Shown here piece after piece: positions 36,411-56,601 of a stretch of DNA of 64,000 bases; position 1 is the first letter of the stretch; each line of letters begins with the position of its first letter. This DNA comes from Microbulbifer salipaludis. GTDB lineage: Bacteria; Pseudomonadota; Gammaproteobacteria; Pseudomonadales; Cellvibrionaceae. The stretch spans positions 1,054,001-1,118,000 of the forward strand of contig NZ_JAEKJR010000001.1 in NCBI RefSeq assembly GCF_017303155.1, written 5' to 3'. A program made the translations under genes and the position numbers. The notes beneath the pieces were generated by a model that searched no databases, was not told where the DNA came from, and saw nothing but the letters and a program-made list of their open reading frames with translations.

Positions 36411-36524
36411 GGCGTCGATGCCGGGTACGGGTTTGTGAGACCTTCTAAAACAGGGATGTTTTAGAAGAGCCCCCAGGGATGGGTACACGGCGTGTCTCAC
36501 AAACCCGTACCCGGTAGCGACGCC
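36411..36524. repeat. Nested-palindrome repeat, copy A
   Basis: A 114-base intergenic element between argE and argA. Outer arms of 31 bases (36411-36441 and 36494-36524) pair at 29 of 31 positions. Inside is a perfect 10-bp hairpin (36442-36467, loop AGGGAT), then the core GAGCCCCCAGGGATGGGT (36467-36484), which recurs identically in copy B on the other strand. It carries no ORF and does not end in a T-tract, so it is not a simple terminator. Confidence 0.85.
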
Positions 36525-36551
36525 GCCACCGGATCGAAATGACAGGTACCA

Positions 36552-37706
36552 CTACAGGCAAAATCGCCCAATCATGCCCTTTAACACTTCCACCATCGGA
36601 TCAATCCGCTCCAATCCAAGATACTCGTCGGGCTGGTGTGCCTGATCAATATCACCGGGCCCAAGCACAATCGTCTGCATCCCCAGCTTCTGCAGGAAGG
36701 GCGCTTCGGTGGCAAAGGCGACACTCTCGGCACTGTGCCCGGTCAGCTGCTCGGCCACCTGTACCAGTTCCGATTGCGCCGGCTCCTCGAATGCTTCGAC
36801 ACCACCGATCAGTGAATCCATTTGCAGCTGAATTTTTTCATCGTCCACTACATTTTTCAGGCGCTGGTGCAGCTCGCCTCGCAGTGCGTCCATCGGCATA
36901 CCCGGAAGCGGGCGCAGGTCGAACTGCAGCTCCGTGTGGCCACAGATCCGGTTGGGGTTGTCACCGCCGTGAATGCAGCCGAGGTTGAGGGTGGGTACCT
37001 GCACCGCGAATCCGGGATTCCGGTAACGCTCCTGCCACTCCCCGCGCAATTTCAGGATTTCAGACATCGCGGTGTGCATCGCTTCCAGCGCGCTGGCACC
37101 GTATGCGGGGTTGGAGGAGTGCCCTGCCTGGCCGGTGATGCGCAGGCGCTCCATCATCATGCCCTTGTGCATACGGATGGGTTTCAGGCCCGTAGGCTCG
37201 CCGATAATGGCGTAGCGGGCCTTGGGTAAACCCGCCTTTACCAGTGCGCGGGCGCCGGACATGGAGGTTTCCTCGTCGGCGGTGGCGAGAATAATCAGCG
37301 GCTGTTGCAGGGGTTTGCCGGCAAAGGCTTTGGCGGCTTCAATGGCCAGCGGGAAAAAGCCCTTCATGTCGGTGCTGCCCAGGCCGTACCAGCGATTGTC
37401 GCGCTCGCTCAGCTTGAACGGGTCCGATTGCCAGCGGTTGTCGTCGTAGGGCACTGTGTCGGTATGCCCGGCCAGCACCAGGCCGCCATCGCCACTGCCG
37501 AGGGTGGCGATCAGGTTGGCTTTGTGGGGCTGGTCTTCCATGGGCATGATCTGTACGGAAAAACCAAGCGTCTCAAGCCATGCGGCCAGCAGGTCGATTA
37601 CGCCGCGGTTGCCCATGTCCAGCTTGGGATTGGTGGCGCTGACACTGGGGCTGGCCACCAGTTGTTGCAGCTGGCTCTGCAGGTCGGGCAGCGTGCGGGT
37701 GCTCAT
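36552..37706 (-). CDS. argE: Acetylornithine deacetylase ArgE
   Basis: Zinc-dependent M20-family amidohydrolase that converts N2-acetylornithine to ornithine. The protein has 384 residues (E. coli 383). Metal-site motifs are visible: LAGHTDTVPYD, GLGSTDMKGFFPLA and TADEETSMSGARALV, with the catalytic Glu-Glu. The dimerisation lid lies between about 180 and 290. It is upstream of argA on the same strand, separated by the nested palindrome, and possibly transcribed with the DMT gene 30 bases before it. Confidence 0.95.
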   Translation of the reverse strand: MSTRTLPDLQSQLQQLVASPSVSATNPKLDMGNRGVIDLLAAWLETLGFSVQIMPMEDQPHKANLIATLGSGDGGLVLAGHTDTVPYDDNRWQSDPFKLSERDNRWYGLGSTDMKGFFPLAIEAAKAFAGKPLQQPLIILATADEETSMSGARALVKAGLPKARYAIIGEPTGLKPIRMHKGMMMERLRITGQAGHSSNPAYGASALEAMHTAMSEILKLRGEWQERYRNPGFAVQVPTLNLGCIHGGDNPNRICGHTELQFDLRPLPGMPMDALRGELHQRLKNVVDDEKIQLQMDSLIGGVEAFEEPAQSELVQVAEQLTGHSAESVAFATEAPFLQKLGMQTIVLGPGDIDQAHQPDEYLGLERIDPMVEVLKGMIGRFCL

Positions 37707-37736
37707 AGCTTCTTTCCTTGCATGGGAACGCGATGT

Positions 37737-38606
37737 CTATGGGTGTTTGTTGCGCCACTCGCTGAGAGCGACGGCGGCGACGATCAAGAGTCCGCCGGCG
37801 ATCAGTCGCGGCAGGTCAGCATCGCGGTTCCAGATCAGCAGATTGACGATCAGCCCCGCGGGAATCAACACATTGTTCATGGCCGCCAGCGTTGCTGGGG
37901 AGACCTGGGTGGCGCCCTTGTTCCACAGAAAGTAGCCGATACCGGACGCCACTGCGCCGAGCCAGAGTAGCACGCTCCATTGCACCACACCGGTGGGGTA
38001 CTGCGGCTTGCCTAGTAGTAGCCAGGCAATGGCGGCCACAATGCTGGCGCCGATAAAAAACCAGCCGAATGTCTGCCGCGGTGGCAGCGATTTGCCACGC
38101 ACTGCGCTGGATTGCATAAACTGCCTGTAGGCTACCTGGCCGCTGGCAAAGCACAGGTTGGCGCCTTGCACCACAAAAAAGCCGAGCCAGTAATCATCGC
38201 TGAGGCTGTCCCAACGAATAATGGCGGCACCAGCCACGGCGATCGCGGCCACCAGCAGGTTCCACAGGCTATTGCGCAGCGAGAGCCGGCGCGCCAGCAG
38301 GTTGTAGATCAGTGCAATATATACCGGTGTGAAAATAGTAAACAGCAGTACTTCCGGCACGCTCAGCAGCAGGAACGACTGGTAGTAAAACAGGTACATC
38401 AGGCCCAGCTGAATGGCGCCAATGGCCATCAGGGTAATGGCAGTGCGTGGTGGCGTGCGCCAGTTGAGAAAGGGTAGAAAGACCAGGGTTGCCAGTAGCA
38501 CGCGGGTGAGTACGGAAAAATAGCTGTCGACCTGGCCGGCCAGGTAGACCCCGATCAGGCTGAAGGAAAAGGCCCACAGTAAGGTGACAATGATCAGAAG
38601 TAGCAT
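37737..38606 (-). CDS. DMT-superfamily (EamA) transporter
   Basis: A 289-residue inner-membrane protein with ten predicted helices arranged as two EamA repeats (LLWAFSFSLIGVYL near the start; GYFLWNKGATQVSPATLAAMNNVLIPAGLIVNLLIW in the second half). These are drug/metabolite exporters of very varied substrate. The closest architecture I recall is YtfF/carboxylate-amino acid-amine exporters; a substrate cannot be assigned. It starts 15-20 bases from the divergent DUF6314-like gene and reads toward argE. Confidence 0.85.
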   Translation of the reverse strand: MLLLIIVTLLWAFSFSLIGVYLAGQVDSYFSVLTRVLLATLVFLPFLNWRTPPRTAITLMAIGAIQLGLMYLFYYQSFLLLSVPEVLLFTIFTPVYIALIYNLLARRLSLRNSLWNLLVAAIAVAGAAIIRWDSLSDDYWLGFFVVQGANLCFASGQVAYRQFMQSSAVRGKSLPPRQTFGWFFIGASIVAAIAWLLLGKPQYPTGVVQWSVLLWLGAVASGIGYFLWNKGATQVSPATLAAMNNVLIPAGLIVNLLIWNRDADLPRLIAGGLLIVAAVALSEWRNKHP

Positions 38607-38621
38607 GAACAGGTGTTTCCA

Positions 38622-39092
38622 TTGAATTCGCTGGTGGATTACAAAGCGTTAAGCGCGTTAGCGCAATTGGTAGAACGTCTGCAAAAGGTGCGGGCGTTCA
38701 GTTTTACTGCCAGCAACGGACCCGGCTCAAAAACCAACTGGCGTGGTCACGGGCGTGGGGATGTGACGGTTACCAGCTGCGGAGCCCATACCCTGTTTGC
38801 CGAGCGGGCAGAATTTTCCGATGCGGACGGCCATAAAATTGACCTGCAGAATACCTATCGCTGGACCCGTTGCCCCGCGTTCGTTCGCCTCGAGCACCTG
38901 CGGCGTGCGCAGCCGGTGCTCCTGTTCAACCTGGCACCGGTGACCGAGCACGGGTTTCGCCACCAGGCACCGCACTTGTGTGGTGAGGATACCTACACCG
39001 CCGACCTGATTCTGCACGCGGATGAGATCGAATTGATCTGGCAGATTCACGGGCCGCGCAAAAACGAACGTTTGCATTATCACTACTGGTAG
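38622..39092 (+). CDS. DUF6314-like protein
   Basis: A soluble protein of about 156 residues. The C-terminal pattern HLCGEDTYTADLILHADEIELIWQIHGPRKNERLHYHYW resembles DUF6314, whose members share H-C-D-Y and GPRKN near the end; this is recall of the family, not a search. No function is known. No ATG is available: GTG at 38613 and TTG at 38622 are the candidates; the TTG has an AGGTG box 6 bases upstream. It sits divergently next to the EamA transporter. Confidence 0.6.
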   Translation: MNSLVDYKALSALAQLVERLQKVRAFSFTASNGPGSKTNWRGHGRGDVTVTSCGAHTLFAERAEFSDADGHKIDLQNTYRWTRCPAFVRLEHLRRAQPVLLFNLAPVTEHGFRHQAPHLCGEDTYTADLILHADEIELIWQIHGPRKNERLHYHYW

Positions 39093-39130
39093 CCCCTGTT
39101 TTTACCGTGAAAACAGGATACCCTCGTGCC

Positions 39131-39170
39131 CATTCTGACCCATTTTCTTCTGACCCATTTTCTCCTGACC
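39131..39170. repeat. 15-bp tandem repeat upstream of the M24 peptidase
   Basis: Two complete copies and one partial copy of the unit CATTTTCTTCTGACC (second copy with one change) end about 36 bases before the peptidase ATG. The repeat lies in the 5' leader of the transcript. Confidence 0.7.
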
Positions 39171-39206
39171 GATAGTCTCGTGATGGATACCCGTGGAGAA
39201 CGTGAC

Positions 39207-40472
39207 ATGCCCACCAAGCGCCAACTTCTGAAAACCGCCGCGCTGCTGGCGATGACGCCGGCAGTGCCCCTGCGCGCCGCCACCAACGCCGCGCCCGCGG
39301 ACAAAAAGCCCGGATCCCTGCTCGACGGCGTGCAGCCAATTCAAGTGTCCGAGCGGCAGGCGCGGGTCGAGAAGGCGCAAGCACTGATGGGCAAGGTCGG
39401 TATCGATGCCATGGTACTGGAGCCTGGTGCCGCCATGCTGTACTTCACCGGGATTCGCTGGTGGCGCTCGGAGCGTCTGACCTGTGTAGTGATTCCCCGG
39501 CGCGGCGATATTGCCGTGGTAACGCCATTCTTTGAAGAGCCCTCGGTGCGCGAGTCCATGACCTTTGGCGAGGATGTCCGCACCTGGCACGAACACGAGA
39601 GCCCGTTTGCGCGGGTGGCTTCGGTGCTCAAGGACCGCGGCATCAAGAGCGGCACCCTTGGCCTCGAGGCCTCGGTACGCTGGTTTGTGGCCGATGGCCT
39701 GCGGGACGCCCTGTCCGGGTTCAAGCTGGTGAGTGCCGACCCGGTTACCCGCGGCTGCCGTATGGTCAAGAGCCCGGCGGAGCTGGCGCTGATGAAAAAG
39801 GCCAACGAAATCACCCTGGCCGCCTATGGCATGGTGTGGAAGCAGTTGCGCCCGGGGATGACACCGGCCGACGTCAACCAGCTGATGCGCGAGGCGCAGA
39901 CCAGCCTGGGTGGGCAGGGTGTGTGGACCATGGCCCTGTTTGGCGAGGGCAGCGCCTATCCCCACGGCACCGATCAGCCGCAGCAGATTCGCGAAGGCCA
40001 GATTGTGCTGATGGACTGCGGCTGCAGTGTCGAAGGCTACCAGTCGGATATTTCCCGCACCTTCGTGTACGGGGAGCCCAGTAAAAAACAGCAAAAAATC
40101 TGGCAGCTGGTGCGCGAGGGGCAGAATGTGGCCTTTGAGGCCGCCAAACTCGGTGCGCCGGCGGGCAGTGTCGACGACGCGGTGCGCGCGTTTTATCTGA
40201 AAAATGGCTTCGGGCCGGACTACCGCCTGCCCGGACTGTCCCATCGCACCGGCCACGGAATCGGTATGGAAGGACACGAGCCGGTGAATTTTGTGCGCGG
40301 CGAAAAAACCGAGTTGGCACCGGGCATGTGTTTTTCCAATGAGCCGGGCATTTATCTGCCGGGGGAATTCGGTGTGCGTCTGGAAGACTGCCTGTACATG
40401 ACGGAGAAGGGGCCTGCCTGGTTTACCCTGCCGCCAGACAGCCTCGCCAGCCCACTGGGGCGCCTGGGTTGA
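39207..40472 (+). CDS. Exported M24-family metallopeptidase (Xaa-Pro dipeptidase-like)
   Basis: A 421-residue protein with an exported N-terminus (MPTKRQLLKTAALLAMTPAVPLRA), which looks like a Tat-related signal with Lys-Arg instead of Arg-Arg. The catalytic domain has the five M24 ligands: Asp in LMDCGCSVEG and SDISRTF, His in SHRTGHGIGM, Glu in FSNEPGIYL and GVRLEDCLY. An N-terminal creatinase-like domain comes first. Such periplasmic M24 peptidases are common in marine gammaproteobacteria; the substrate is unknown. The ATG has a GGAGAACG box upstream; earlier in-frame starts run through a tandem repeat and lack a signal. A 7-bp hairpin overlaps the stop. Confidence 0.85.
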   Translation: MPTKRQLLKTAALLAMTPAVPLRAATNAAPADKKPGSLLDGVQPIQVSERQARVEKAQALMGKVGIDAMVLEPGAAMLYFTGIRWWRSERLTCVVIPRRGDIAVVTPFFEEPSVRESMTFGEDVRTWHEHESPFARVASVLKDRGIKSGTLGLEASVRWFVADGLRDALSGFKLVSADPVTRGCRMVKSPAELALMKKANEITLAAYGMVWKQLRPGMTPADVNQLMREAQTSLGGQGVWTMALFGEGSAYPHGTDQPQQIREGQIVLMDCGCSVEGYQSDISRTFVYGEPSKKQQKIWQLVREGQNVAFEAAKLGAPAGSVDDAVRAFYLKNGFGPDYRLPGLSHRTGHGIGMEGHEPVNFVRGEKTELAPGMCFSNEPGIYLPGEFGVRLEDCLYMTEKGPAWFTLPPDSLASPLGRLG

Positions 40473-40489
40473 GCCCAGGCAAATTCCCG

Positions 40490-41299
40490 CTAAAGGGTGA
40501 TCTGCCCGCGCAGATAGGTAATGGCGCGTCCGCGCATGATCACCCGCTCCCCGTTCAGTTCGCAATCCAGCTCGCCACCGCGGGCTGAAATCTGTCTCGC
40601 CTTGAGAGCGGGCTTATCCAGCTTTGCCGCCCAGAAAGGCGTCATGTACGTGTGGGCCGAGCCGGTCACCGGGTCTTCATCAATGCCGATGGCCGGGGCG
40701 AAGAAGCGGCTGACGAAGTCGCAGTCAAATCCATCACCGGGCGCGGTGCAGATCACCCCCTTGTAGGGAAGCCTGGCCACCGCGCGCATATCGGGCTCGA
40801 GATTGGCAACGATGTCCGCGGAGGCAAACTCCACCAGCAGCTGATCGTTGGAACCGGCAACTTCCATGGCTGACAGCGGCGCGACACCGAGGGCGTCGGT
40901 ATATTCCTCGCCGAGACTGATCGGTTGGATGTTTTGTACGGGGAAGTCCAAAGCCAGCCGCTCCCCTTCACCCTCTCTTTCCCGACGCACGATCAGCTTG
41001 CCGCTGCGGGTGAAGAAGTGTATTTCATCGTCAATAAACCCCAGCTCCGACCACAGCAGATGCGCAGTGGCCAGGGTGGCGTGACCGCACAAGGGGACCT
41101 CTTCGCCGGGGGTAAACCAGCGCAGTTCGAAGCCGTGGCCGGCAGGCACGGTGAACGCGGTTTCCGCGAGGTTGTTCTCGGCGGCGATCTGTTGCAGTTG
41201 TTGGTCGTCGAGCCAGCGGGTCAGTGGTACATAGGCGGCGGGGTTGCCGCGAAAGAGTGCCGAGGTAAAGGCGTCGGCCTGGTAGATGGGCAGTTGCAT
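40490..41299 (-). CDS. PhzF-family isomerase/epimerase
   Basis: A 269-residue protein of the PhzF (phenazine biosynthesis-like) family, related to diaminopimelate epimerase. The catalytic Glu46 is in AENNLAETAF, and PLCGHATLATAHLLW and DPVTGSAHTYMTPFW are the hallmark motifs. Most relatives have no known substrate; no phenazine genes adjoin, so a role in phenazine synthesis is not implied. It converges with the M24 peptidase. A gagGAGT box precedes the ATG. Confidence 0.9.
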   Translation of the reverse strand: MQLPIYQADAFTSALFRGNPAAYVPLTRWLDDQQLQQIAAENNLAETAFTVPAGHGFELRWFTPGEEVPLCGHATLATAHLLWSELGFIDDEIHFFTRSGKLIVRREREGEGERLALDFPVQNIQPISLGEEYTDALGVAPLSAMEVAGSNDQLLVEFASADIVANLEPDMRAVARLPYKGVICTAPGDGFDCDFVSRFFAPAIGIDEDPVTGSAHTYMTPFWAAKLDKPALKARQISARGGELDCELNGERVIMRGRAITYLRGQITL

Positions 41300-41326
41300 G
41301 GAGGAGTCCTTCTCACATTACCAGCA

Positions 41327-41361
41327 TAAAAAAAGGGAGCGCCCGGAGGCACTCCCTTTTG
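41327..41361 (-). terminator. Terminator after the PiT/DUF47 operon
   Basis: On the minus strand AAAAGGGAG and CTCCCTTTTTTT form the stem, with a C/A mismatch and three more GC pairs above it; a T-tract follows. It lies between the PiT stop and the PhzF start. Confidence 0.8.
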
Positions 41362-41415
41362 TATCAGGCGCGGTGGGTCATTGTCATTACCCGGCGCTGT
41401 GTTACCAGCCCCTCT

Positions 41416-42693
41416 TTACCAACTAAAGACGCCCTTGAAGAAGAAGAAGAACAGAATCGCCAGGCCGGCGCCCGCGGGCAGGGTCACGATCCAGGAGGCG
41501 GCGATGGTGGTGATCATGCGCAGGTTAAGCGCACCGATACCGCGTGCCAGGCCGACCCCCAGTACCGCACCCACCAGGGTGTGCGTGGTGGAAATGGGCA
41601 GGCCGGTGCCGGAGGCGAGGACCACCGTGGCAGCCGCACCCAGCTCGGCAGCAAAACCGCGGCTCGGGGTCAGCTCGGTGATCTTGCGGCCGATCGTAGC
41701 CATTACCTTGAAGCCATAGGTGGCGAGGCCCACCACGATACCGGCACCACCCAGCAGCAGGATCCATGGCGGCATCACCGCTTTGGCAGTAACCGTGCCC
41801 TGTTGTACGGTGTTCACCACCGCGGCTAGCGGGCCGACGGCGTTGGCTACATCGTTGGAGCCGTGGGCAAACGCCATGGCACAGGCGGTGAAGATCATCA
41901 GGATGGCAAACACGCGCTCCACGTTGGCAAAGCGGTTGTCTTTTTCCATCGCCGGGTCGCGTTTGATGCGCTTCAGCAGCACCATACCGATGGCCATGAC
42001 CACCAGGCCCATCACCCCGGCAATCAACGCGTCCTGCAGGAAGCTCAGGGAAATACCGGCGTCCTTGAACACGTGCTTGAGGCCCTTGGTGAGCGTCACC
42101 ATGGAGATCATCCAGCCCACCGCAAACATGTAGACGGGGATGTAGCGCTTGGCGTTGGTGAAGGGGTCCTCGGTGTTGAGGATCAGCCGCTGCACGCTTC
42201 TGAATAACAAAAACGAGATGGTGCCGGCGAGCACCGGCGAGACCACCCAGCTGGCCACGATGCTGGCCACCTTGCCCCAGGCCACCGCGTCCACCGAGAT
42301 GCCCACGGCCGAGAAGCCAACGATGGCGCCGACAATGGAGTGGGTGGTGGAAACGGGCCAGCCCAGAATACTGGCGATCATCAGCCAGGTGCCCGCCGCC
42401 AGCAGAGCGGAAAGCATGCCGTACACCAGCAGCTCTGGTGTGTCGTTAAATAGGTCCGGGGCAATGATGCCCTTGCGGATGGTCGAGGTCACTTCACCGC
42501 CGGCCAGGTAGGCGCCGGCAAACTCGAAGATCATGGCGATGATAATCGCCTGTTTGATGGTCAGTGCGCGGGAGCCCACGGAGGTGCCCATGGCGTTGGC
42601 CACATCGTTGGCGCCCACACCCCAGGCCATGAAAAATCCGAACACACAAGCCAGAATCAGAAAGATATGGCCGTATTGAGCAATGATATCCAC
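41416..42693 (-). CDS. pit: PiT-family inorganic phosphate transporter
   Basis: A 425-residue low-affinity phosphate:H+ symporter of the PiT (PHO-4) family with about ten helices. The duplicated signature is seen as MAWGVGANDVANAMGTSVGSRALT near the start and AFAHGSNDVANAVGPLAAV in the second half; both contain the GANDVANA core. The C-terminal LPISTTHTLVGAVLGVGLARG also fits. The DUF47 gene is 15 bases upstream and is cotranscribed. The pair matches PA5207-PA5208 beside argE-argA in P. aeruginosa, so the location is conserved. Confidence 0.94.
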   Translation of the reverse strand: MDIIAQYGHIFLILACVFGFFMAWGVGANDVANAMGTSVGSRALTIKQAIIIAMIFEFAGAYLAGGEVTSTIRKGIIAPDLFNDTPELLVYGMLSALLAAGTWLMIASILGWPVSTTHSIVGAIVGFSAVGISVDAVAWGKVASIVASWVVSPVLAGTISFLLFRSVQRLILNTEDPFTNAKRYIPVYMFAVGWMISMVTLTKGLKHVFKDAGISLSFLQDALIAGVMGLVVMAIGMVLLKRIKRDPAMEKDNRFANVERVFAILMIFTACAMAFAHGSNDVANAVGPLAAVVNTVQQGTVTAKAVMPPWILLLGGAGIVVGLATYGFKVMATIGRKITELTPSRGFAAELGAAATVVLASGTGLPISTTHTLVGAVLGVGLARGIGALNLRMITTIAASWIVTLPAGAGLAILFFFFFKGVFSW

Positions 42694-42708
42694 GTTTTCT
42701 CTCCCCGC

Positions 42709-43386
42709 TTAGCGCGCCAGTAACAACTGCAATCGGTTACCCACACCGTGGGCCTCATCTGCCAGGTCACCGACCCACTCGATCACCCGGTAGAGGAAAA
42801 TCACATCTACCGGCGGCAGGTCTTTTTCTAATTTGAACAGTGCCGCGCGCACTTCGACTTCGAGCTCGTCAGACTTGCGCTCGAGATCGTCCAGTTCTTC
42901 GGTCATGCGGCGGGCGATATCCACTTCGCGGCCGGAAAAGCCGGATTCCAGCAGTTCGTCCAGCTCGTTGATAGCCTTCAGCGCCTGGGCGGAGGTGGCC
43001 ACGGCACTTTCGACAAAGATGGTCATCATCGGGTGCATGGATTCCGGGAACTGCATCTGGCGGCCAATGGCCAGGCCCGCAATGTCCTGGGCCTTGTTGG
43101 CGACCTTGTCCTGCACGTGCAGCAACTCCAGCAGGTCGCTGCGGGAGACCGGCATAAACAGGCTGTCCGGCAGGTGCAGGCGCAGGTCTTTCTTGATGTC
43201 GTCGGCGCGGTTCTCGCTGGCGGAGATGCGTTGCTGAACGGTTTTGGCCGTGCTGAAGTCGCCCTGCATAAGGGCTTCAAAGAAGGGCACCAGATCCGCT
43301 GACGCCTCGTGGGCGGTCGCCATGTGCTCCTTGATCGGCTTGATCGGCGAGCGGCCGAACAGGTTGGCGATATTGGACAGGGGCAT
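42709..43386 (-). CDS. DUF47/TIGR00153 PhoU-like protein
   Basis: A 225-residue helical protein of the DUF47 family, distantly related to PhoU, encoded directly upstream of the PiT gene and probably regulating or assisting it. The region LLHVQDKVANKAQDIAGLAIGRQM and the C-terminal DVIFLYRVIEWVGDLADEAHGVGNRLQLLLAR are typical. The ATG has an AAGGAACA box upstream. Earlier in-frame starts add residues without family homology. No Pho box was recognised in the 235 bases before it. Confidence 0.9.
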   Translation of the reverse strand: MPLSNIANLFGRSPIKPIKEHMATAHEASADLVPFFEALMQGDFSTAKTVQQRISASENRADDIKKDLRLHLPDSLFMPVSRSDLLELLHVQDKVANKAQDIAGLAIGRQMQFPESMHPMMTIFVESAVATSAQALKAINELDELLESGFSGREVDIARRMTEELDDLERKSDELEVEVRAALFKLEKDLPPVDVIFLYRVIEWVGDLADEAHGVGNRLQLLLAR

Positions 43387-49361: not shown

Positions 49362-50319
49362 TTTCCAGTGCCTCCTGTTGTTTTTGTTGTGCGGGTGCTT
49401 GGCTTTCATTCACCTGGCGGAACAGGCTTTCCAGATCCTGCTGCTCCGGCTGCAACCGGTACAGTTCGCCACCGGCGGCGATGAGGGTGCGGGCGATTAC
49501 GGCACTGGTGGAACGCAGGTTGGCGTCCTCCGTCAGCGCAATGCGGAACTGCCCGACCTTGGCCATTGCTTCGATACTCTCGATGCCTTCGTCTTTGCCC
49601 AGGCGGCCGAGTACCTCGCGGGCGTCGGTGGCGGAGGTTTCAAGCCAGATGCGGTTGGCGTTGCGCAGGCGCTCGAGTCTTTCGTCCACGGCGAGTTGGC
49701 CGCGGTGAATAATCAGCACGCGATCACACAGTGCTTCCACTTCCTGCATGATGTGGGTGGAGAGGATGACGGTGGCTTCGCGGGCGATCTCTTTGATGAG
49801 TGCGCGCATCTGCCGGGTCTGGGTGGGGTCGAGGCCGTTGGTGGGCTCGTCGAGGATCAGCAGCCGGGGCCGGCCGAGTATGGCCTGGGCGACGCCGACG
49901 CGCTGTTTGTAACCCCGCGAGAGGGTGTGGATGCGCGCGTGCAGTTTGTCCGCCAGCTCGGTGGCTTTGATGGCGCGGCGGATTTCGGCAACCTTTTCGT
50001 CGCCGTCGAGGCCTTTTAATGAGGCGGCGTAGTCGAGGTAGTCGGCGACGGTCATTTCGCCGTACACGGGCAGGTTTTCCGGCAGGTAGCCCAGTTGCCG
50101 TTGCAGGGTTTTGGGCTTGTCGGCCATGTCGATGCCATCAATATTGACGCTGCCGGTATCCGGTTCCAGATAGCCGGAGAGCATTTTCATGATGGTGGTT
50201 TTGCCGGCGCCGTTGTGGCCGAGCAGGCCGACAATTTCGCCTTTGCCGATTGTAAAACTGACGTCGTCGACGGCTTTGAATTCGCCATAACAACGGCTGA
50301 GGTGGGTGACTTCCAGCAC
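49351..50319 (-). CDS. ABC transporter ATP-binding protein (GldA-like)
   Basis: A 322-residue ATPase with Walker A GHNGAGKTT, Q loop, signature LSRGYKQRVGVAQAI, Walker B LLILDEPTNGLD and the His of LSTHIMQEVEALCD. It belongs to the ABC-2 ATPase group (CcmA/NatA/GldA). It is the first gene of a three-gene operon with the fused permease and DUF4340. The divergent region upstream contains repeat copy B and then glnE. Confidence 0.93.
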   Translation of the reverse strand: MLEVTHLSRCYGEFKAVDDVSFTIGKGEIVGLLGHNGAGKTTIMKMLSGYLEPDTGSVNIDGIDMADKPKTLQRQLGYLPENLPVYGEMTVADYLDYAASLKGLDGDEKVAEIRRAIKATELADKLHARIHTLSRGYKQRVGVAQAILGRPRLLILDEPTNGLDPTQTRQMRALIKEIAREATVILSTHIMQEVEALCDRVLIIHRGQLAVDERLERLRNANRIWLETSATDAREVLGRLGKDEGIESIEAMAKVGQFRIALTEDANLRSTSAVIARTLIAAGGELYRLQPEQQDLESLFRQVNESQAPAQQKQQEALENAA

Positions 50320-50863
50320 CTTGTCCTCCTTTGGGTTTGGTTGTCAGGGGTGGTGGTAACGCAATTCCTCTTAACGGGCGCCGTGGCGGCACCGCTAGGT
50401 GGTACAGCTTTGCGAGACACGCCATAAACCCATCCCTGGGGGCTCGGCTGCGGCCGTCCTGGCCGCAGACGGTCTCGCAAAGCTGCACCACCTATCGGCG
50501 CCTGCGCTCATAGTTAAGAAGTATGAAAAATGTGCCGCAGTGATTTGTGACTGGTTATGGAGGCGGACGCGAGATGGGCAGGTAGATGGCGCGTCGAATG
50601 GCGCGGCAGTTAGTTAGCGCGACTGGGGGGTGGTTGTGGCTGTTCTGGGGGTGGTGAGTCGAAATAATCATTGCTCGTACAACGGGGGACGCCCCGGAAT
50701 AAAAACAAGGTTCAGACGAAACAACGCCAAATTTTTTAACGGCATTTAGATAGGGCCGGGTGGCAAAAGTTCAAGCCCGGGCACGACGAATGGGGCGACG
50801 GCCAATGTATACTTGCGGGCTATCGTTAAGATGGACTTGTCGCGACCGTCAGGAGATACCCGC
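50320..50863. other. Divergent intergenic region, ABC ATPase / glnE
   Basis: A 544-base region holding repeat copy B and about 360 further bases with no gene I can support. The stretch 50600-50700 is G-rich and the last 60 bases hold a TATACT box (50812-50817 region) that may be part of the glnE promoter; the -35 match is poor. Confidence 0.4.
50388..50502. repeat. Nested-palindrome repeat, copy B
   Basis: A 115-base element in the opposite orientation to copy A. The 31-base arms (50388-50418 and 50472-50502) pair at 28 positions. On the minus strand an inner hairpin CTGCGGCC / GGCCGCAG (loop AGGAC) is followed by the core GAGCCCCCAGGGATGGGT (50428-50445), identical to copy A. Confidence 0.85.
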
Positions 50864-53734
50864 ATGCCGTTGATTGATCACTGCCCCGCCGAACACCAGC
50901 CCCAGCTTCGTCAGCGTTGGGAGGCCTGGTGTGGGGCGGTGGGTGCAGATCGGGTGGCGGAGATAGAAGCGCTGCTGGATGCGGAGCGTGCCCAGGTGCT
51001 GGCGCGGGCTTTTGTAGGGTCGGACTTTTTTGTGCAGCAGTGCGGGCGCCACTCCCACTGGTTGGCGGCACTGTTGCAGAGCGATGACTGTGGTCTGGCT
51101 GCACCGGATCTCGCGGAGATCGAATCGGAAGAGCAGCTGGAAAAAATACTGCGCAATCTGCGCAACCGGGTGAATTGCGAGGTAATCTGGCGTGATTTTG
51201 CCGGCCAGTGGGATATCCCAACGGCCTGTGCGCGACTGACCCAACTGGCGGAGGTGTGCATTCAGGCGGCGCTCGATTGGCACCGCCTTAAGATGGTTGA
51301 GCGCCACGGCGAGCCGCGCAGCCGCGAGGGTGCGGTACAGCCGATGATCGTGTTGGGCATGGGCAAGCTGGGTGCGCGGGAGTTGAACCTGTCTTCCGAT
51401 ATCGACCTCATTTTTGCTTACCCGGAACCGGGTCAGAGCGACGGTGACAAGCCCCTGGAAAACCAGGCGTGGTTCCAACGCCTGGGGCAGCGCCTGATCA
51501 AATCCCTGGATACGGTTACCGCGGACGGTTTTGTGTTTCGCGTGGATATGCGCCTGCGTCCTTACGGCGACAGCGGGCCGCTGGTGAGCCACTACGCTGC
51601 GCTGGAGGATTACTACCAGACCCAGGGCCGCGAATGGGAGCGCTACGCCATGATCAAGGCGCGTCCGGTGGCCATGAGCGGTGGCGATGGTGGCGTAGCG
51701 GCGGAAGCGGCAGAAGAACTGATGGAGTTACTGCGCCCGTTTACCTACCGTCGCTACATAGACTTCAGTGTGATCGAGGCGCTGCGGGAAATGAAAACCC
51801 TAATCCAGCGCCAGGTCCGCGCCCGCGGTATGACGGACAACATCAAGCTCGGTCGCGGCGGTATTCGCGAGGTGGAATTTATTGCCCAGGCGTTCCAGCT
51901 GATTCGCGGTGGGCGCGAGCCGGACCTGCGGGTGCGCAACATTTTAAAGGTGTTGCCGCTGCTGGAAGCCGATGGTCATTTGCCGGCGGGCAGTGCGGAG
52001 CAGTTGTGGGATGCCTATCTGTTGCTGCGCCGGGTGGAGCACGGCCTGCAAGCGGAGCGCGACCAGCAAACCCAGACCCTGCCCGCGGAGATGGCACGGC
52101 GTGAACAACTGGCGTTTGCGCTGGGCTATGCCTCCTGGCCACTGCTGGCGGAAAAACTGGATGCCGCGCGCGCAATCATCGAGCACGAATTTGACGAGGT
52201 CATTGCGCCGCCGGAGGAGCCTGCCGAGCTGACCGCAAATGATCAGTGGCAGCTGCTGTGGGCGGGCTGCGAGCGCAATGCCGACCGCGACAGCTGGCTG
52301 GAGAAGTTGCACCAGGCCGGCTTTCAGCCCGCGTCCCAGGCGCTGGATTGCATCGTTGCCCTGCACAGTGATCGCATTGTCAGTGCGTTGCCGGCTTCCA
52401 GTCGCCAGCGCCTGGACCAGACCATGCCGCTGCTACTGGCTTCCGCTTCTGAAGTCGGCGAGCCGTTACTGGCGCTGGAACGGGTGATGCCCCTGCTGCG
52501 CTCCATTCTGCGTCGCAGCGCCTATCTGGTGTTGATCAATGAAAACCCGCCGGTGCTGGCGCAGCTGTTGCAGCTGTGCGCCGCGTCGCCGTGGATTGCC
52601 GAGCAGCTCGCCCGTCACCCGATCCTGCTGGACGAAATGCTCGATCAGCGCCGCCTGCTGGCACCCTCTACCGCTGGCGATATTGCCGACGACCTGCGTC
52701 AGGAAATGCTGCGCGTGGAGCCGGATGATCTTGAGGGGCAGATGGAAGCCCTGCGCCTGTTCAAGCAGAGCCAGAGCCTGCGTATTGCCGCGCAGGAGGT
52801 GACCGGTGCCCTGCCGCTGATGAAGGTGAGCGATTCCCTCACCTGGCTGGCGGAGGCGATCCTGCAGCAGTCTCTGGCGCTCGCGTGGCAGCAGATGACG
52901 GAAAAGCACGGTTTGCCCGGCGGGGCGAGCGCCGACGATATGCGCTTTGCGATCATTGCCTATGGCAAGCTGGGTGGTTTGGAGCTGGGGCACGGTTCCG
53001 ACCTGGATATCGTGTTTGTGCACGATGCCGAACCGCAGCAGTACACCGATGGTGAACGATCCATCGACAACCTGAGTTTCTACACCCGTCTCGCCCAGCG
53101 TCTGATCCATATCCTGCAGACCCGAACCCTGAGCGGCCCCCTGTACGAAGTGGACACCCGCCTGCGCCCGTCGGGCAACTCCGGCCTGTTGGTGACCTCC
53201 CTGGCCGCGTTCGAGAAATACCAGCGCGAGAGCGCCTGGACCTGGGAGCACCAGGCGCTGGTACGTACGCGTCCGGTCGCCGGCAGCGTGCGCCTTGGCG
53301 AGGCATTCGAGGCGCTGCGAGTAACGCTGCTGTGCGAGCTGCGCGACGCACCGAAATTGCGCGGGGAAGTGGTGGAGATGCGGGACAAGATGCGCGCGCA
53401 TCTCGACAAGTCGGGCAGCCAGCAATTTGACCTGAAGCACGGCCCGGGCGGCATCATCGATATCGAATTTATCGTGCAATTTACCGCGCTGGCATGGGCC
53501 CACAAGGCTCCTGCCATTGTGCGCTACACCGACAATATCCGGATTCTGCAGAGCCTGACCGAGGCCGGCCTGCTGCCAGAAACCGAGGCCGCCGACCTGA
53601 CCGGGGCCTACAAAGCCTATCGCTCGGAAGGGCATCGCCTCGCGTTGCAGCAACTGCCCGCTCAGGTGCCCGCGGACTGGTTTCCCGCCGAGCGCGAAAA
53701 TGTTGAGCAGGTGTGGAAGCGATTGCTGGGCTGA
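50864..53734 (+). CDS. glnE: Bifunctional glutamine synthetase adenylyltransferase/deadenylase GlnE
   Basis: Controls glutamine synthetase by adding or removing AMP in response to PII and glutamine. The 956-residue protein (E. coli 946) has two nucleotidyltransferase domains: GMGKLGARELNLSSDIDLIFAYP (about 160-185) for deadenylylation and AYGKLGGLELGHGSDLDIVFVHD (about 700-725) for adenylylation. The PII-binding region lies between, and KHGPGGIIDIEFIVQF is near residue 863. The ATG at 50864 has an AGGAG box 9 bases upstream; an in-frame start 17 codons earlier is weaker. It is followed by a degenerate copy of its own 3' end, then by ilvE, as in the P. aeruginosa glnE-ilvE order. Confidence 0.95.
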   Translation: MPLIDHCPAEHQPQLRQRWEAWCGAVGADRVAEIEALLDAERAQVLARAFVGSDFFVQQCGRHSHWLAALLQSDDCGLAAPDLAEIESEEQLEKILRNLRNRVNCEVIWRDFAGQWDIPTACARLTQLAEVCIQAALDWHRLKMVERHGEPRSREGAVQPMIVLGMGKLGARELNLSSDIDLIFAYPEPGQSDGDKPLENQAWFQRLGQRLIKSLDTVTADGFVFRVDMRLRPYGDSGPLVSHYAALEDYYQTQGREWERYAMIKARPVAMSGGDGGVAAEAAEELMELLRPFTYRRYIDFSVIEALREMKTLIQRQVRARGMTDNIKLGRGGIREVEFIAQAFQLIRGGREPDLRVRNILKVLPLLEADGHLPAGSAEQLWDAYLLLRRVEHGLQAERDQQTQTLPAEMARREQLAFALGYASWPLLAEKLDAARAIIEHEFDEVIAPPEEPAELTANDQWQLLWAGCERNADRDSWLEKLHQAGFQPASQALDCIVALHSDRIVSALPASSRQRLDQTMPLLLASASEVGEPLLALERVMPLLRSILRRSAYLVLINENPPVLAQLLQLCAASPWIAEQLARHPILLDEMLDQRRLLAPSTAGDIADDLRQEMLRVEPDDLEGQMEALRLFKQSQSLRIAAQEVTGALPLMKVSDSLTWLAEAILQQSLALAWQQMTEKHGLPGGASADDMRFAIIAYGKLGGLELGHGSDLDIVFVHDAEPQQYTDGERSIDNLSFYTRLAQRLIHILQTRTLSGPLYEVDTRLRPSGNSGLLVTSLAAFEKYQRESAWTWEHQALVRTRPVAGSVRLGEAFEALRVTLLCELRDAPKLRGEVVEMRDKMRAHLDKSGSQQFDLKHGPGGIIDIEFIVQFTALAWAHKAPAIVRYTDNIRILQSLTEAGLLPETEAADLTGAYKAYRSEGHRLALQQLPAQVPADWFPAERENVEQVWKRLLG

Positions 53735-53908
53735 GGCGCTAAAACCTGTTGCTGGGTGTTGGGGCGTGTGCAGGAACCGGGTGTGTTCGGTTCACAAGCA
53801 GCGGTGCCGGATTTGGGCTGCATAAAAATTGCGTGAAAAAGCGGTAACCATGGGCGCGAGAAGATGCGAAACCCCTGGCCGGAGCAATGATCGTACACTC
53901 GGGACTGT

Positions 53909-54216
53909 TGTGCCTCAGACGGTATTGTCGCTATCCAATTTATGGTTCAATATGACCCACTGGCCCGGGCGCAGCGCGCCCCTCAACTGTGCGATCACTC
54001 GATAAAATTCGCATTCCTGAATGTCTCACCGAGACGGGCCTGATGCCGGCCCACCAAGCCGTGCATTGGATCGACGCCTACAAAGCCTACCGATCTGAAG
54101 GTCATCGCCCGGCATTACAACAGCGGCCGGGGGTTGTATCCGGTGACCAATTCGAAGCGGAAAGAAAGACCGTTGCAACAACTTGGCAGCAGATGCCGGA
54201 CCGAGCGAGCGCGTGA
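53909..54216 (+). pseudogene. Decayed fragment of a second glnE (3' end)
   Basis: This segment aligns to the last 110 codons of the intact glnE that ends 175 bases upstream. Bases 53909-53983 match codons of the HGPGGIIDIEFIVQFTALAWAHKAP stretch (CASDGIVAIQFMVQYDPLARAQRAP), then a single missing base shifts the frame, and from 53989 the frame VRSLDKIRI... parallels VRYTDNIRI... to a stop at 54216. Over 69 aligned residues from there 37 are identical by hand count, including the ten-residue run YKAYRSEGHR. Traces of similarity appear further upstream, from about 53820, with stop codons. It is too diverged for a recent duplication. Confidence 0.85.
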
Positions 54217-54281
54217 AATTGTCGCCTGCTGCCCGGCCTGTGAGCGCTGCCCGATTAAACTGTTTTTCATCAGGCTCTGTA

Positions 54282-54361
54282 CTGTAGGAGCCCGCCTGCA
54301 GGCGAATTGGCTCGACCCGGTGTAGACCGCTCCCGCTCCTTCCCCCAGGCCGTTCCTACAG
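54282..54361. repeat. REP-like element upstream of ilvE
   Basis: An 80-base stretch bounded by CTGTAGGA (54282-54289) and TCCTACAG (54354-54361), which are perfectly complementary, with an internal palindrome GCCTGCAGGC near 54294. The start resembles the TGTAGGAGC-type repetitive extragenic palindromes of pseudomonads. Between glnE and ilvE (53735-54393), this and the glnE fragment are the only features seen. Confidence 0.65.
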
Positions 54362-54393
54362 AGTGCGTTTATAGAATTTTGTAGGAGTTTCCC

Positions 54394-55350
54394 ATGTCTT
54401 TTGCCGATAGAGACGGCGTTATCTGGTTTGACGGTGAACTGGTTCCCTGGCGCGACGCCCGAGTCCATGTACTGACCCACACCCTGCACTACGGGATGGG
54501 CGTGTTCGAAGGCGTGCGCGCCTACGAGACCGCCGATGGCGGTACCAGCATCTTTCGCCTGCACGAACATACCCGCCGCCTGTTCCGGTCTGCCAAGATC
54601 ATGAATATGCCCATGCCGTTTGCGGAAGAACAGCTGAACGAGGCCCAGCGACTGGTGGTGCGCGAGAATGGGCTGAAAGAAGCCTACCTGCGCCCGATGG
54701 CATTTTACGGCTCCGAAGGTATGGGGCTGCGCGCCGATGCGCTGCAGACCCACGTGATTGTTGCCGCCTGGGAGTGGCCGAGCTACATGACCCCGGAAGC
54801 GCGTGAGTTGGGCATCAAGGTCAATACCTCTTCGTACACCCGCCATCATGTGAACATTGCCATGTGCAAGGCGAAGGCCAACGGCAACTACATTAACTCC
54901 ATGCTTGCCCTGCAGGAGGCGATTCGCAACGGCTGTGAGGAAGCGCTGTTGCTGGATCCGGAGGGGTATGTGGCCGAGGGCAGCGGTGAGAACTTCTTCC
55001 TGGTCAGCGACGGCGTGATCTACACCCCGGAACTGACCTCTTGCCTGGACGGGATTACCCGCAAATCGGTCATCCAGCTTGCAGAAGAGTGTGGCTACAA
55101 GGTGGTGGAAAAACGCATCACCCGCGACGAGGTGTACATCGCCGATGAAGCCTTTTTTACCGGCACCGCCGCGGAGGTACTGCCGATCCGGATGCTGGAC
55201 GGGCGCACCATCGGCGCCGGTCGCCGTGGCCCCATCACCAAGCGTTTGCAGCAAATGTACTTTGACGCGGTACAGGGCCGGAGCCCGGCGCATATGGGTT
55301 GGCTCAGTGACGTGCACGAAACCTGTGAGCCGATGGCGGCCTCTGCCTGA
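54394..55350 (+). CDS. ilvE: Branched-chain amino acid aminotransferase IlvE
   Basis: PLP-dependent fold-type IV aminotransferase that interconverts branched-chain amino acids and their keto-acids. The 318-residue protein starts MSFADRDGVIWFDGELVPWRDARVHVLTHTLHYGMGVFEGVRAY, the typical class IV N-terminus. The Schiff-base lysine is Lys161 in CKAKANGNYINS; ALLLDPEGYVAEGSGENFFLV follows. A GTAGGAG box precedes the ATG. A strong terminator follows. The ilvE-glnE association is conserved in pseudomonads. Confidence 0.96.
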   Translation: MSFADRDGVIWFDGELVPWRDARVHVLTHTLHYGMGVFEGVRAYETADGGTSIFRLHEHTRRLFRSAKIMNMPMPFAEEQLNEAQRLVVRENGLKEAYLRPMAFYGSEGMGLRADALQTHVIVAAWEWPSYMTPEARELGIKVNTSSYTRHHVNIAMCKAKANGNYINSMLALQEAIRNGCEEALLLDPEGYVAEGSGENFFLVSDGVIYTPELTSCLDGITRKSVIQLAEECGYKVVEKRITRDEVYIADEAFFTGTAAEVLPIRMLDGRTIGAGRRGPITKRLQQMYFDAVQGRSPAHMGWLSDVHETCEPMAASA

Positions 55351-55377
55351 TCGGCACCGACCGGTATCCGGTGGAAA

Positions 55378-55415
55378 TAAAAAGGGCGGCAACCTCCGGG
55401 TTGCCGCCCTTTTTT
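55378..55415 (+). terminator. Terminator after ilvE
   Basis: An 11-bp perfect stem GGGCGGCAACC / GGTTGCCGCCC with a 4-base loop TCCG, preceded by A residues and followed by six T residues. Confidence 0.93.
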
Positions 55416-55528
55416 ATGGGCCGCAACGAGAGCCCTTCCCTAGAGGCCCCCAGGCGAATCCCTTAGAATGGCGTTCAGCTGTTACACAACCCATCGAATA
55501 CCGTCTCTGGCGGGGCAAGGTCTGTCGA

Positions 55529-56437
55529 ATGTTTTCCTATTTTATGAAGAAGCGCCTGCGCAAACACGACGCGGTCAACAACCGCAAGCTGGAGTCGATC
55601 CTGCGCATGCAGTTGCTGCAGCAGCAGGCGTTGACCAGTCGCGAGATGGGTGTGGGTAACGACAAGGCGCACAATATCGTTGTGTCCCTGACCTCGTTTG
55701 ATCGCCGGATCCACGATGTGGTGTACGCGGTGGAAAGCCTGTTTCAGCAGTGGGTGAAGGCGGACGCGGTGGTGTTGTGGCTGTCCACCAGAAATTTCCC
55801 CGACCGCATCCTGCCGGAGAGCCTCGAACGGCAGAAGCAGCGGGGCTTGCAGGTGTTCTTCGTGGATGAAGACTTCGGGCCCTACAAGAAATACTGCTAT
55901 GCGTTTGAGCGCTTCCCCGAGAGCCTGATCATCACCGTGGATGACGACACGCTTTACCCACCGGATATGATCGACCAGCTGTACCGCGCCTACCTGCGGG
56001 CGCCGGATGCGATCCACTGCCACCGCGCCCATAAAATGCGCCTGGACGGGCAGGGCAAGTTGAAGCCCTACGATAGCTGGGACTCGGGCCGGCGCTGGAG
56101 CGAGGATGACGAATACCCGTCACCGCTGGTGTTTCCGACCGGCGTGGGTGGCGTACTTTATTTCCCGGGTGCCTTGCATCCGGATGCCTTTGATGCCGAG
56201 AAGTTCATGCGCCTGTGCCCCAACGCAGACGATATCTGGCTCAAGGCCATGAGCCTGAAGCAGGGCACACCTTGTGCGCCGATACTGGATTCCCGCGACT
56301 GGACCACAAGATTTCTGTCGCTGGCGGGCAGCCAGGGTTCGGCGTTGAGAAAAGAAAACTGGCGCAAGCGCGGCGGCAACGACTGCAAAATACGCGACGT
56401 GTTCCAGCATTACGATTTGTACAAGCTGCTGAGATAA
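55529..56437 (+). CDS. GT-A type glycosyltransferase-like protein
   Basis: A 302-residue protein with a basic N-terminus and no signal. VVSLTSFDRRIHDVVYAVESLFQQWVKADAVVLWLS opens a GT-A-like fold. IITVDDDTLYPPDMIDQLYRAYLRAPDAIHCHRAHK carries the acidic DDD in the place of the DxD metal motif, and FPTGVGGVLYFPGALHPDAF and DDIWLKAMSLKQGTPC follow. These are features of sugar transferases acting on surface glycans. The donor and acceptor are unknown. The ATG chosen has an AAGG box 10 bases upstream; a second ATG five codons later is possible. It starts the glycan region downstream of ilvE, with copy C of the palindrome after its stop. Confidence 0.8.
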   Translation: MFSYFMKKRLRKHDAVNNRKLESILRMQLLQQQALTSREMGVGNDKAHNIVVSLTSFDRRIHDVVYAVESLFQQWVKADAVVLWLSTRNFPDRILPESLERQKQRGLQVFFVDEDFGPYKKYCYAFERFPESLIITVDDDTLYPPDMIDQLYRAYLRAPDAIHCHRAHKMRLDGQGKLKPYDSWDSGRRWSEDDEYPSPLVFPTGVGGVLYFPGALHPDAFDAEKFMRLCPNADDIWLKAMSLKQGTPCAPILDSRDWTTRFLSLAGSQGSALRKENWRKRGGNDCKIRDVFQHYDLYKLLR

Positions 56438-56475
56438 ATGCAGACAGTTGCTAGTGCATTGAATTTGGATGGGAA

Positions 56476-56601
56476 GGCGCCGATACCGGGTATAGCTTTG
56501 CAAGACCTTCACCGCCATGGATGGCGGTGCAGAGCCCCATGGATGGGTTAACGGGGGGCGCCTAGCTCGTGTCTTGCAAAGCTATACCCGGTAGCGGCGC
56601 C
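56476..56601. repeat. Nested-palindrome repeat, copy C
   Basis: A 126-base element between convergent genes. The 31-base arms (56476-56506, 56571-56601) pair at 30 positions. An inner hairpin ACCGCCAT / ATGGCGGT and the core GAGCCCCATGGATGGGT (56532-56548) parallel copies A and B, with an extra 12-14 bases after the core. Confidence 0.85.

What the first reader, a model, noticed from the sequence alone, without database searches (positions are those of the whole stretch)
36411..56601. Family of nested palindromic elements, three copies in one window
Copies at 36411-36524, 50388-50502 and 56476-56601 share a layout: two 31-base complementary outer arms, an inner hairpin, and a conserved core. 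The core GAGCCCCCAGGGATGGGT is identical in copies A and B, which lie in opposite orientations, and nearly so in C. They sit in three contexts (tandem, divergent and convergent intergenic regions). They have no T-tract, no ORF and no transposase, so they are neither plain terminators nor insertion sequences. Three copies in 20 kb suggest hundreds per genome. Candidate roles: MITE-like mobile DNA, a structured small RNA or processing site, or a chromosome-organising site.
Basis: seen in the sequence. Interest (0 to 1): 0.7.

Follow-up and report, generated by a model that had tools for sequence, protein, structure and literature searches.

The report
Genome-wide family of strand-specific hairpin elements
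The three sequences belong to a large family of short repeats lying between genes in many related bacteria, whose long stems differ from copy to copy yet still pair with themselves, and whose two small loops almost always carry the same GGA signal.

Summary
Confirmed. Each folds into a three-way junction: an outer stem of about 31 bp and two small hairpins. Outer arms are nearly free in sequence but stay paired. Both small hairpins keep GGA in the loop. Arm mismatches on the GGA strand are G.T far more often than A.C, so a folded single strand is what is kept, not a symmetric cruciform. Copies are intergenic, near stop codons, mildly sense-biased (76:46 in two genomes); close pairs found are all oppositely oriented. 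Between two close relatives 53 of 85 shared copies differ strongly in place, and some sites keep only the foot of the stem. No tie to Y1/RAYT transposases was found. Best reading: a REP-class non-autonomous hairpin element, mobiliser unknown. The loops match CsrA/RsmA sites (16 of 104 own copies hold the exact SELEX consensus), a bold, untested lead; five genomes with many copies but no CsrA match speak against it. New variant of a known kind.

The parts
36409..36532 (+). copy A (class I), whole folded element; GGA strand is +, genes on both sides run on -
   Evidence: covariance model match in the own genome; fold z -10.8
36411..36441 (+). copy A, 5' outer arm
   Evidence: inverted repeat I5
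36443..36466 (+). copy A, hairpin 1, loop AGGGAT
   Evidence: sequence and fold
36467..36484 (+). copy A, hairpin 2 core with GGA loop
   Evidence: pattern match, fold
36494..36524 (+). copy A, 3' outer arm
   Evidence: inverted repeat I5
36385..36408 (+). copy A, weakly conserved upstream flank of the family
   Evidence: flank profile of 101 copies; family-level, not tested for this copy
36533..36549 (+). copy A, weakly conserved downstream flank of the family
   Evidence: flank profile of 101 copies; family-level, not tested for this copy
50380..50504 (-). copy B (class I), whole folded element
   Evidence: model match; fold z -9.3
50472..50502 (-). copy B, 5' outer arm
   Evidence: inverted repeat I7
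50446..50471 (-). copy B, hairpin 1, loop with CAGGACG
   Evidence: sequence and fold
50428..50445 (-). copy B, hairpin 2 core with GGA
   Evidence: pattern match
50388..50418 (-). copy B, 3' outer arm
   Evidence: inverted repeat I7
56474..56609 (+). copy C (class I with the extra module), whole folded element
   Evidence: model match; fold z -8.4
56476..56506 (+). copy C, 5' outer arm
   Evidence: inverted repeat I4
56507..56531 (+). copy C, hairpin 1, loop ATGGAT
   Evidence: sequence and fold
56532..56549 (+). copy C, hairpin 2 core with GGA
   Evidence: match G000:C1:1110532-1110549
56555..56567 (+). copy C, extra module around GGCGCCTAGC, seen at the same place in copies of both classes
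   Evidence: sequence comparison; limits set by eye
56571..56601 (+). copy C, 3' outer arm
   Evidence: inverted repeat I4

Best explanation
The copies are members of one family of non-autonomous, dispersed palindromic repeats of the REP/REPIN kind. What is kept is the folded form of one defined strand, the one with GGA in the loops: a long outer stem that carries two small hairpins. SHOWN here: family size, fold, covariation of the arms, strand asymmetry of mismatches, GGA in the loops, intergenic place near stop codons, strong differences in place between close relatives, and sites where only the foot of the stem is left. INFERRED: the family spreads and is rewritten through a folded single-stranded form handled by an enzyme not identified here; the arms stay matched because a changed arm is corrected from, or selected against, its partner; the hairpin is lost by deletion between short repeats; and where the element is transcribed it acts as a 3'-end hairpin whose GGA loops a loop-binding protein could read, CsrA/RsmA being the obvious candidate.
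For: Arms: 101 own copies show all four Watson-Crick pairs at columns 20-23 with 0-2 broken per column. Cross-genus: 44 copies give 91.9% paired cells against 37.3-45.7% when slid, covariation 0.96 against 0.15-0.21; these 44 of 73 were picked for arms that match at 22 or more of 31 positions, so the percentage is inflated by that choice. Strand: G.T against A.C 138:3, 133:9, 145:16 in three genomes and 67:24 in 53 cross-genus copies found by a pattern outside the arms. Loops: GGA in hairpin 1 in 100 of 102, 124 of 125 and 61 of 69. Place: 103 of 104 intergenic by my own gene caller; tandem single copies nearer the upstream stop in 37 of 55 and 50 of 67. Turnover: 53 of 85 shared copies under 90% identical; 8 of 31 located partner sites read by eye as scars.
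Against: No mobiliser found; only Y1 transposases were looked for. No clean insertion with a target duplication was read: partner sites are scars or differ over the whole intergenic stretch, so gain is inferred. Rewritten copies have no donor above 0.93 identity in either genome, which plain copying between present copies does not explain. G.T pairs are also the better tolerated mismatch in DNA, so the strand test cannot separate RNA from ssDNA. In G007 the inner 20 arm positions show no significant bias (15:9, p=0.31), and G000 and G027 are not independent. About 20 of 73 cross-genus copies have poorly matching arms (12-21 of 31).
Confidence: 0.55

Rival explanations
1. The main selected function is as RNA: each element is a CsrA/RsmA-binding module at mRNA 3' ends, one dimer bridging the two GGA loops, and the many copies together act as targets of, or a distributed sponge for, CsrA.
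For: GGA in both core halves in 100 of 104 own copies, the two GGAs 23-24 nt apart in 88 of 104; exact CsrA SELEX consensus in 16 of 104, 17 of 113 and 16 of 135 copies, none on their other strand and none in 265 kb of surrounding sequence (overlapping loci counted twice). Consensus and preference for GGA in a loop as given in PMC4347634, section 10 read. Folded GGA strand kept. Single copies sense:antisense 35:20 and 41:26, pooled 76:46, p=0.008. Own genome has one csrA; the 11 genomes with 5-27 CsrA matches have few scored elements (1-13, one with 49); Spearman -0.49, n=47.
Against: Six genomes have no CsrA match at E<=0.001, five of them with 67-73 scored elements. 46 of 122 tandem single copies are antisense, and strand bias and loops are no weaker there (42:4). 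Genomes with one csrA can also have few elements (G025 1, G042 2, G046 0, G014 8). No transcription data.
Confidence: 0.22
2. An mRNA 3'-end hairpin (stabiliser, attenuator or RNase III site, as proposed for BIME, ERIC and NEMIS repeats) without CsrA and without present-day mobility.
For: Position near stop codons and mild sense bias; very stable stem; RNase III processing proposed for NEMIS RNA (PMC2229807, passages).
Against: Does not explain conserved GGA loops, hairpin cassettes exchanged between copies or the strong differences in place between relatives.
Confidence: 0.1
3. A REPIN-type element mobilised in trans by a Y1 (RAYT/IS200-like) transposase.
For: Similar size, palindromic, opposite pairs; REPIN paper reports hairpins, compensatory changes and excision reads (PMC3116915, passages). 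A weak Y1 gene (24-33 bits) occurs once in many genus genomes.
Against: Of 14 Y1 loci examined (about 1.5 kb each side) none of the two own ones and only one other (30.7 bits, L356) has a model match; copies against Y1 matches Spearman -0.07; three genomes without a Y1 match have 17, 49 and 38 scored copies; no GTAG tag at the foot.
Confidence: 0.06
4. A double-stranded or cruciform chromosome-organising site.
For: G007 copies by sixth of the replichore from dnaA: 50, 24, 25, 23, 18, 9 (best 149 only). No own copy in C2:1.098-1.860 Mb; three in G027 C2:437-1349 kb, where a dif-like sequence with 3 mismatches lies (none found in G000 or G007).
Against: Arms have little fixed sequence; a cruciform is alike on both strands, the mismatches are not. 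Gene content near the origin could give the same gradient; not tested.
Confidence: 0.03

Closest known systems
REPINs and RAYT-associated REPs (PMC3116915 and PMC3686654, passages read)
   Same: Intergenic, high copy, palindromic, hairpin in ssDNA or mRNA, compensatory changes, loss of the hairpin.
   Different: Here the centre is fixed and the arms vary; REPIN ends are fixed and the spacer varies. About 124 nt folded with a three-way junction; no GTAG tag; no Y1 link found.
CGTC-tagged REPs, above all the Halothiobacillus neapolitanus CGTC-1 dimers inside 41-bp palindromes (PMC3733652, passages read)
   Same: Two hairpins nested in a longer palindrome; no dedicated transposase; opposite dimers; mostly near 3' ends. 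The printed half-palindrome attcacgGGTaTTTCgAAGC looks like class II right arms by eye, so those repeats may be relatives (not tested).
   Different: CGTC stems are 8-9 bp, start with AT pairs and end in CCA tails; the paper gives the outer palindrome a consensus, here it is variable.
CsrB/RsmZ-type CsrA-binding RNAs (PMC4347634, section 10 and passages read)
   Same: GGA in hairpin loops, some exact SELEX-consensus sites.
   Different: Two-site elements at many loci instead of one many-site sRNA; no Rfam match; no promoter-like site at copy A.
ERIC, NEMIS/Correia, RPE and other miniature repeats (PMC2229807, passages read)
   Same: About 100-150 bp, long stem, intergenic, possible RNA roles.
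   Different: Not comparable in sequence as far as tested: copy A has no match in 20,395 E. coli records; the others were not compared.

Membership tests
RAYT-associated REP/REPIN | GTAG-type tetranucleotide at the foot of the hairpin | tested here: not met
   ends of 101 copies read AAGG at the 5' foot and GCCAC at the 3' foot
RAYT-associated REP/REPIN | cognate Y1 transposase gene flanked by copies | tested here: not met
   no model match within about 1.5 kb of the two own Y1 genes; 1 weak match in 12 other Y1 loci
RAYT-associated REP/REPIN | copy number depends on presence of the transposase gene | tested here: not met
CGTC-tagged REP | 8-9 bp stem starting with AT pairs, 4-5 nt loop, CCA tail | tested here: not met
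   hairpin 1 stems after CGTC begin TGCG, GGCG, GCAA and the like, read by eye in the alignment; feature list from PMC3733652 passages
CGTC-tagged REP | dimer nested in a longer palindrome (as in H. neapolitanus) | tested here: met
   two hairpins inside 31-bp arms; identity with the H. neapolitanus repeats not tested
CsrA/RsmA-binding RNA | GGA exposed in hairpin loops | tested here: met
   hairpin 1: 100/102, 124/125, 61/69 copies, shuffles 15-18%
CsrA/RsmA-binding RNA | high-affinity consensus RUACARGGAUGU | tested here: inconclusive
   exact in 16/104, 17/113, 16/135; the other copies differ
CsrA/RsmA-binding RNA | CsrA present in the host | tested here: inconclusive
   42 of 48 genus genomes have a match, own genome one; five genomes with 67-73 scored copies have none
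CsrA/RsmA-binding RNA | binds CsrA and is transcribed | not testable with these tools
   no binding or RNA data
intrinsic terminator | T-tract after the stem | tested here: not met
   none after the arms of A, B or C in either orientation; scan at A
Rfam RNA families | match at gathering score | tested here: not met
   none in the window; on elements in 8 loci only sub-threshold hits
ERIC | sequence similarity to enterobacterial ERIC | tested here: not met
   no match of copy A in 20,395 E. coli records, blastn, E<=0.1; that ERIC occurs in E. coli is recalled
MITE | fixed terminal inverted repeats and target-site duplication | tested here: inconclusive
   the inverted repeats are the variable arms; partner sites gave no readable duplication

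The most novel reading that the evidence does not exclude
A mobile RNA-level regulatory element: hundreds of dispersed hairpins carrying paired CsrA/RsmA sites on a self-matching palindrome, so that a selfish repeat has become, or exploits, a genome-wide CsrA titration network, with genomes amplifying either the element or csrA.
Probability: 0.2. Interest if true: 0.85.

Novelty: new variant of a known kind. Interest (0 to 1): 0.62.

Why it matters
The family is spread over many gammaproteobacterial genera, reaches no Rfam family's gathering score, and was not found described in ten searches of an open-licence library, which misses most subscription journals. Its arms are a clean natural experiment on how palindromes evolve: pairing is kept while sequence is almost free, and differences in place and hairpin loss can be read between close species. 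The mismatch asymmetry tells which strand matters. The GGA loops allow a simple biochemical test of a link between mobile repeats and the Csr network.

Tried and rejected
Rejected: plain terminator (no T-tract); part of a gene (103 of 104 own copies intergenic); an Rfam RNA; Y1-driven REP; symmetric cruciform; arms copied from each new target site (arms share a consensus within the genus, and look related within Xanthomonas).

Led nowhere: plasmids (one partial match, 40% of the query, in a Marinobacter plasmid), phages (none), E. coli (none); literature searches returned nothing, 30 four, 31 one and 81 one paper that looked off topic in the listing. One search returned nothing for a title phrase of a paper the library holds (one search lists it), so empty searches are weak evidence. 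An enrichment of paired copies between convergent genes in G000 (14 of 38 paired against 4 of 66 single) did not repeat in G007 (10 of 42 against 17 of 93, p=0.49).

Limits and dropped rows: gene contexts come from a codon-usage caller I wrote, not from annotation; one fragment (C2:952749) was dropped from the 104 places and one copy (L075) added. A4 uses 101 of 104 copies. The cross-genus set is 73 copies from 80 of the 120 loci; the strand test used the 53 with 22 or more of 31 matching arm positions, A5 used 44 of the 73. One search leaves out copies of 145 nt or more and arms under 80% complementary. G033 (80% complete) was left out of the correlations. Only 60 of 87 planned G007 regions were fetched. 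Of 47 copies without a partner, 31 partner sites were located; scars, no-trace sites and other repeats there were read by eye.
Full report
CHECK OF THE OBSERVATION. Mechanical repeat finding gives the same 31-nt arms with 94, 90 and 97% complementarity. A and B share the core exactly, in opposite orientation, and C nearly so. Each folds far better than 200 shuffles (z -10.8, -9.3, -8.4). A lies between argE and argA, B between an ABC-transporter ATPase gene and glnE, C between a gene without a family match and a UDP-glucose-dehydrogenase-type gene. The host is probably a Microbulbifer: named Microbulbifer records carry closely similar copies, and one genus genome has a contig of the same length as a named M. 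elongatus contig.

FAMILY SIZE. A covariance model built from the three copies gives 120 matches at E<=1 in the own genome, 104 places after removing antisense duplicates. One of these is a fragment that I dropped, and one further copy turned up in a fetched locus, so 104 copies were studied. Only 150 of 256 candidates were scored, so this is a lower bound. G027 has 113 and G007 149, with the same cap.

ANATOMY. Copies fall into two classes, judged by eye: class I ends its inner arm in GAGACC/GTGTC and has hairpin 2 of the type GAGCCCCCAGGGATGGGTTTACGGC; class II has TTTTCAGGA-type arms and hairpin 2 GCGTACAGGGATGTATTCACAGCG or GCGCCCAGGGATGGGTTCACAGCG. Hairpin 1 comes as exchangeable cassettes with different stems. 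A short module around GGCGCCTAGC occurs at the same place in copies of both classes. Weakly conserved flanks reach about 24 nt upstream and 17 nt downstream, so the unit may be nearer 165 nt.

ARMS. In 101 own copies the middle arm columns show all four Watson-Crick pairs, for example CG 32, UA 30, AU 22, GC 17 with none broken. In 44 copies from many genera 91.9% of cells pair against 37.3-45.7% when partners are slid by one to three columns; the covariation score is 0.96 against 0.15-0.21. Those 44 of 73 were picked for well matching arms, which inflates the first figure; of all 73, 53 match at 22 or more of 31 positions and the other 20 at 12-21. Arms are thus nearly free in sequence but mostly bound in pairing. 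Within the genus they share a consensus, so they are not simply copies of each target site.

WHICH STRAND. In a double-stranded cruciform, G.T and A.C mismatches on the GGA strand should be equally common. They are not: G000 138 against 3 (98 copies), G027 133:9 (102), G007 145:16 (120). Many G.T come from two conserved wobble positions; without them the counts are 62:3, 56:8 and 65:16. In the inner 20 pairs they are 20:2, 20:6 and 15:9, the last not significant (p=0.31). G000 and G027 share many near-identical copies and are not independent. The cross-genus copies, found by a pattern that does not touch the arms, give 67:24 (p=7e-6) and 24:8 in the inner 20 (p=0.007). The own-genome bias is present in all four gene contexts (61:3, 42:4, 32:0, 16:1). 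So one strand, folded on itself, is what is kept. This does not separate RNA from single-stranded DNA. An earlier paper took G.T pairs in GTAG repeats as a sign of transcription (PMC3733652, passage).

LOOPS. Hairpin 1 has GGA in its loop in 100 of 102 own copies, 124 of 125 in G007 and 61 of 69 cross-genus copies, against 15-18% in shuffled sequence; in the cross-genus set hairpin 1 lay outside the search pattern. The first and last GGA of the core are 23-24 nt apart in 88 of 104 own copies. Sixteen of 104 own copies, 17 of 113 in G027 and 16 of 135 in G007 hold the exact CsrA SELEX consensus; it is absent from the other strand of the elements and from 265 kb of surrounding own-genome sequence, overlapping loci counted twice. 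The consensus and the preference for GGA in a loop are as stated in section 10 of PMC4347634.

PLACE. 103 of 104 own copies are intergenic by my gene calls, and 132 of 135 in G007 lie between two called genes (two inside, one with a neighbour missing). Single copies between co-directional genes lie nearer the upstream stop: 37 of 55 in G000, 50 of 67 in G007. Sense outnumbers antisense 35:20 (p=0.058) and 41:26 (p=0.086), pooled 76:46, p=0.008. Close pairs (gap under 150 bp in G000, under 300 in the others) are opposite in 19 of 19, 22 of 22 and 21 of 21. Copies thin out away from the origin: G007 has 50, 24, 25, 23, 18 and 9 by sixth of the replichore from dnaA; the own genome has none in C2:1.098-1.860 Mb; G027 has three in C2:437-1349 kb, where a dif-like sequence with three mismatches lies (the same search found none in G000 or G007). 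All rest on capped lists.

DYNAMICS. G027 is a close relative (flank identity 94% on average). 85 of 104 own copies have a same-orientation copy at the orthologous site; three more sites have an inverted one. By the scoring, 32 of 85 are at least 90% alike and 53 of 85 below, 41 of these between 0.60 and 0.80; five changed class. Eleven are identical although their flanks are 83-99% alike. Where arms differ, 265 pairs changed on both sides, 245 of them still Watson-Crick, and 184 on one side; pairs there were defined by RNA folding. In the 53, homology stops a median 49 nt left and 27 nt right of the element, so the near flanks differ too. Some changes look nested: core kept with outer arms changed, or the reverse. 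No copy in either genome matches a changed one above 0.93, so no donor was found. Of 47 copies without a partner, the other genome's site was located for 31: eight read as scars in which the hairpin is gone and the foot of the stem or one outer arm remains, two of them with a short direct repeat at the junction; seven entries at six sites show no clear trace; three carry another palindromic repeat; the rest are the inverted sites, pairs against singles, or copies missed by the capped search. Scars also appear at more distant orthologous sites (L216, L244, L247, L252). Loss of the hairpin is well supported; gain is inferred.

MOBILISER. Copy number is unrelated to the number of Y1 matches (Spearman -0.07, n=47); three genomes without a match have 17, 49 and 38 scored copies; of 14 Y1 loci only one, not in the own genome, has a weak element match. 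No other enzyme was searched for.

CSRA. The own genome has one csrA. The 11 genomes with 5-27 CsrA matches have 1-13 scored elements, 49 in one; overall Spearman -0.49. No tree was built, so shared descent may explain this, and some genomes with one csrA also have few elements. Against the reading, G017, G023, G031, G032 and G036 have no CsrA match at E<=0.001 and 67-73 scored elements. It stays a rival.

VERDICT. A real and widespread palindromic repeat family of the REP kind with its own architecture: fixed centre, free but paired arms, strand-specific fold, two GGA loops. It fails tested defining features of RAYT-REPs and CGTC-REPs, so I file it under neither and call it a new variant of a known kind. 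The nearest layout found in print is the H. neapolitanus CGTC-1 dimers inside 41-bp palindromes (PMC3733652, passages), whose printed half-palindrome resembles class II arms by eye; whether they are the same family was not tested.

Noticed in passing
G009, G021, G028, G029, G030, G034, G038, G040, G043, G044, G045: These genus genomes have 5-27 CsrA (PF02599) matches each, against 0-2 in the other 37.
   Followed up: partly
G017, G023, G031, G032, G036, G047: No CsrA match at E<=0.001 in genomes rated near complete; whether csrA is lost, diverged or missed is unknown (G001 has a diverged one, E 1.5e-11).
   Followed up: no
L222, L235, L236: At the argE/argA site, other species carry a different palindromic repeat (GTAGGAGC...GCTCCTAC, REPIN-like).
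   Followed up: no
L056, L464, L469: Own-genome sites that in G027 hold the element carry another inverted repeat with GTGGATGCGC / GCGCATCCAC arms.
   Followed up: no
window 36340-36361 and orthologous loci: AATATACCGTATTTTCTGCGG just upstream of argA is strongly conserved across the genus although the rest of the intergenic region is not; a possible regulatory site.
   Followed up: no
A weakly matching Y1-like gene with an open frame of about 250-320 codons occurs in many genus genomes, including the own one (C1:799005) and G027.
   Followed up: partly
L119, L150, L165, L177: Records titled Bacillus subtilis and Klebsiella pneumoniae carry the core; probably mislabelled or contaminated assemblies.
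   Followed up: no
L159 126-294: Cobalamin riboswitch (73.7 bits) in a fetched relative locus.
   Followed up: no
window 18162-21849: Three diverged direct copies about 1.35-1.5 kb apart (repeat families D1-D6, D12), probably paralogous genes.
   Followed up: no
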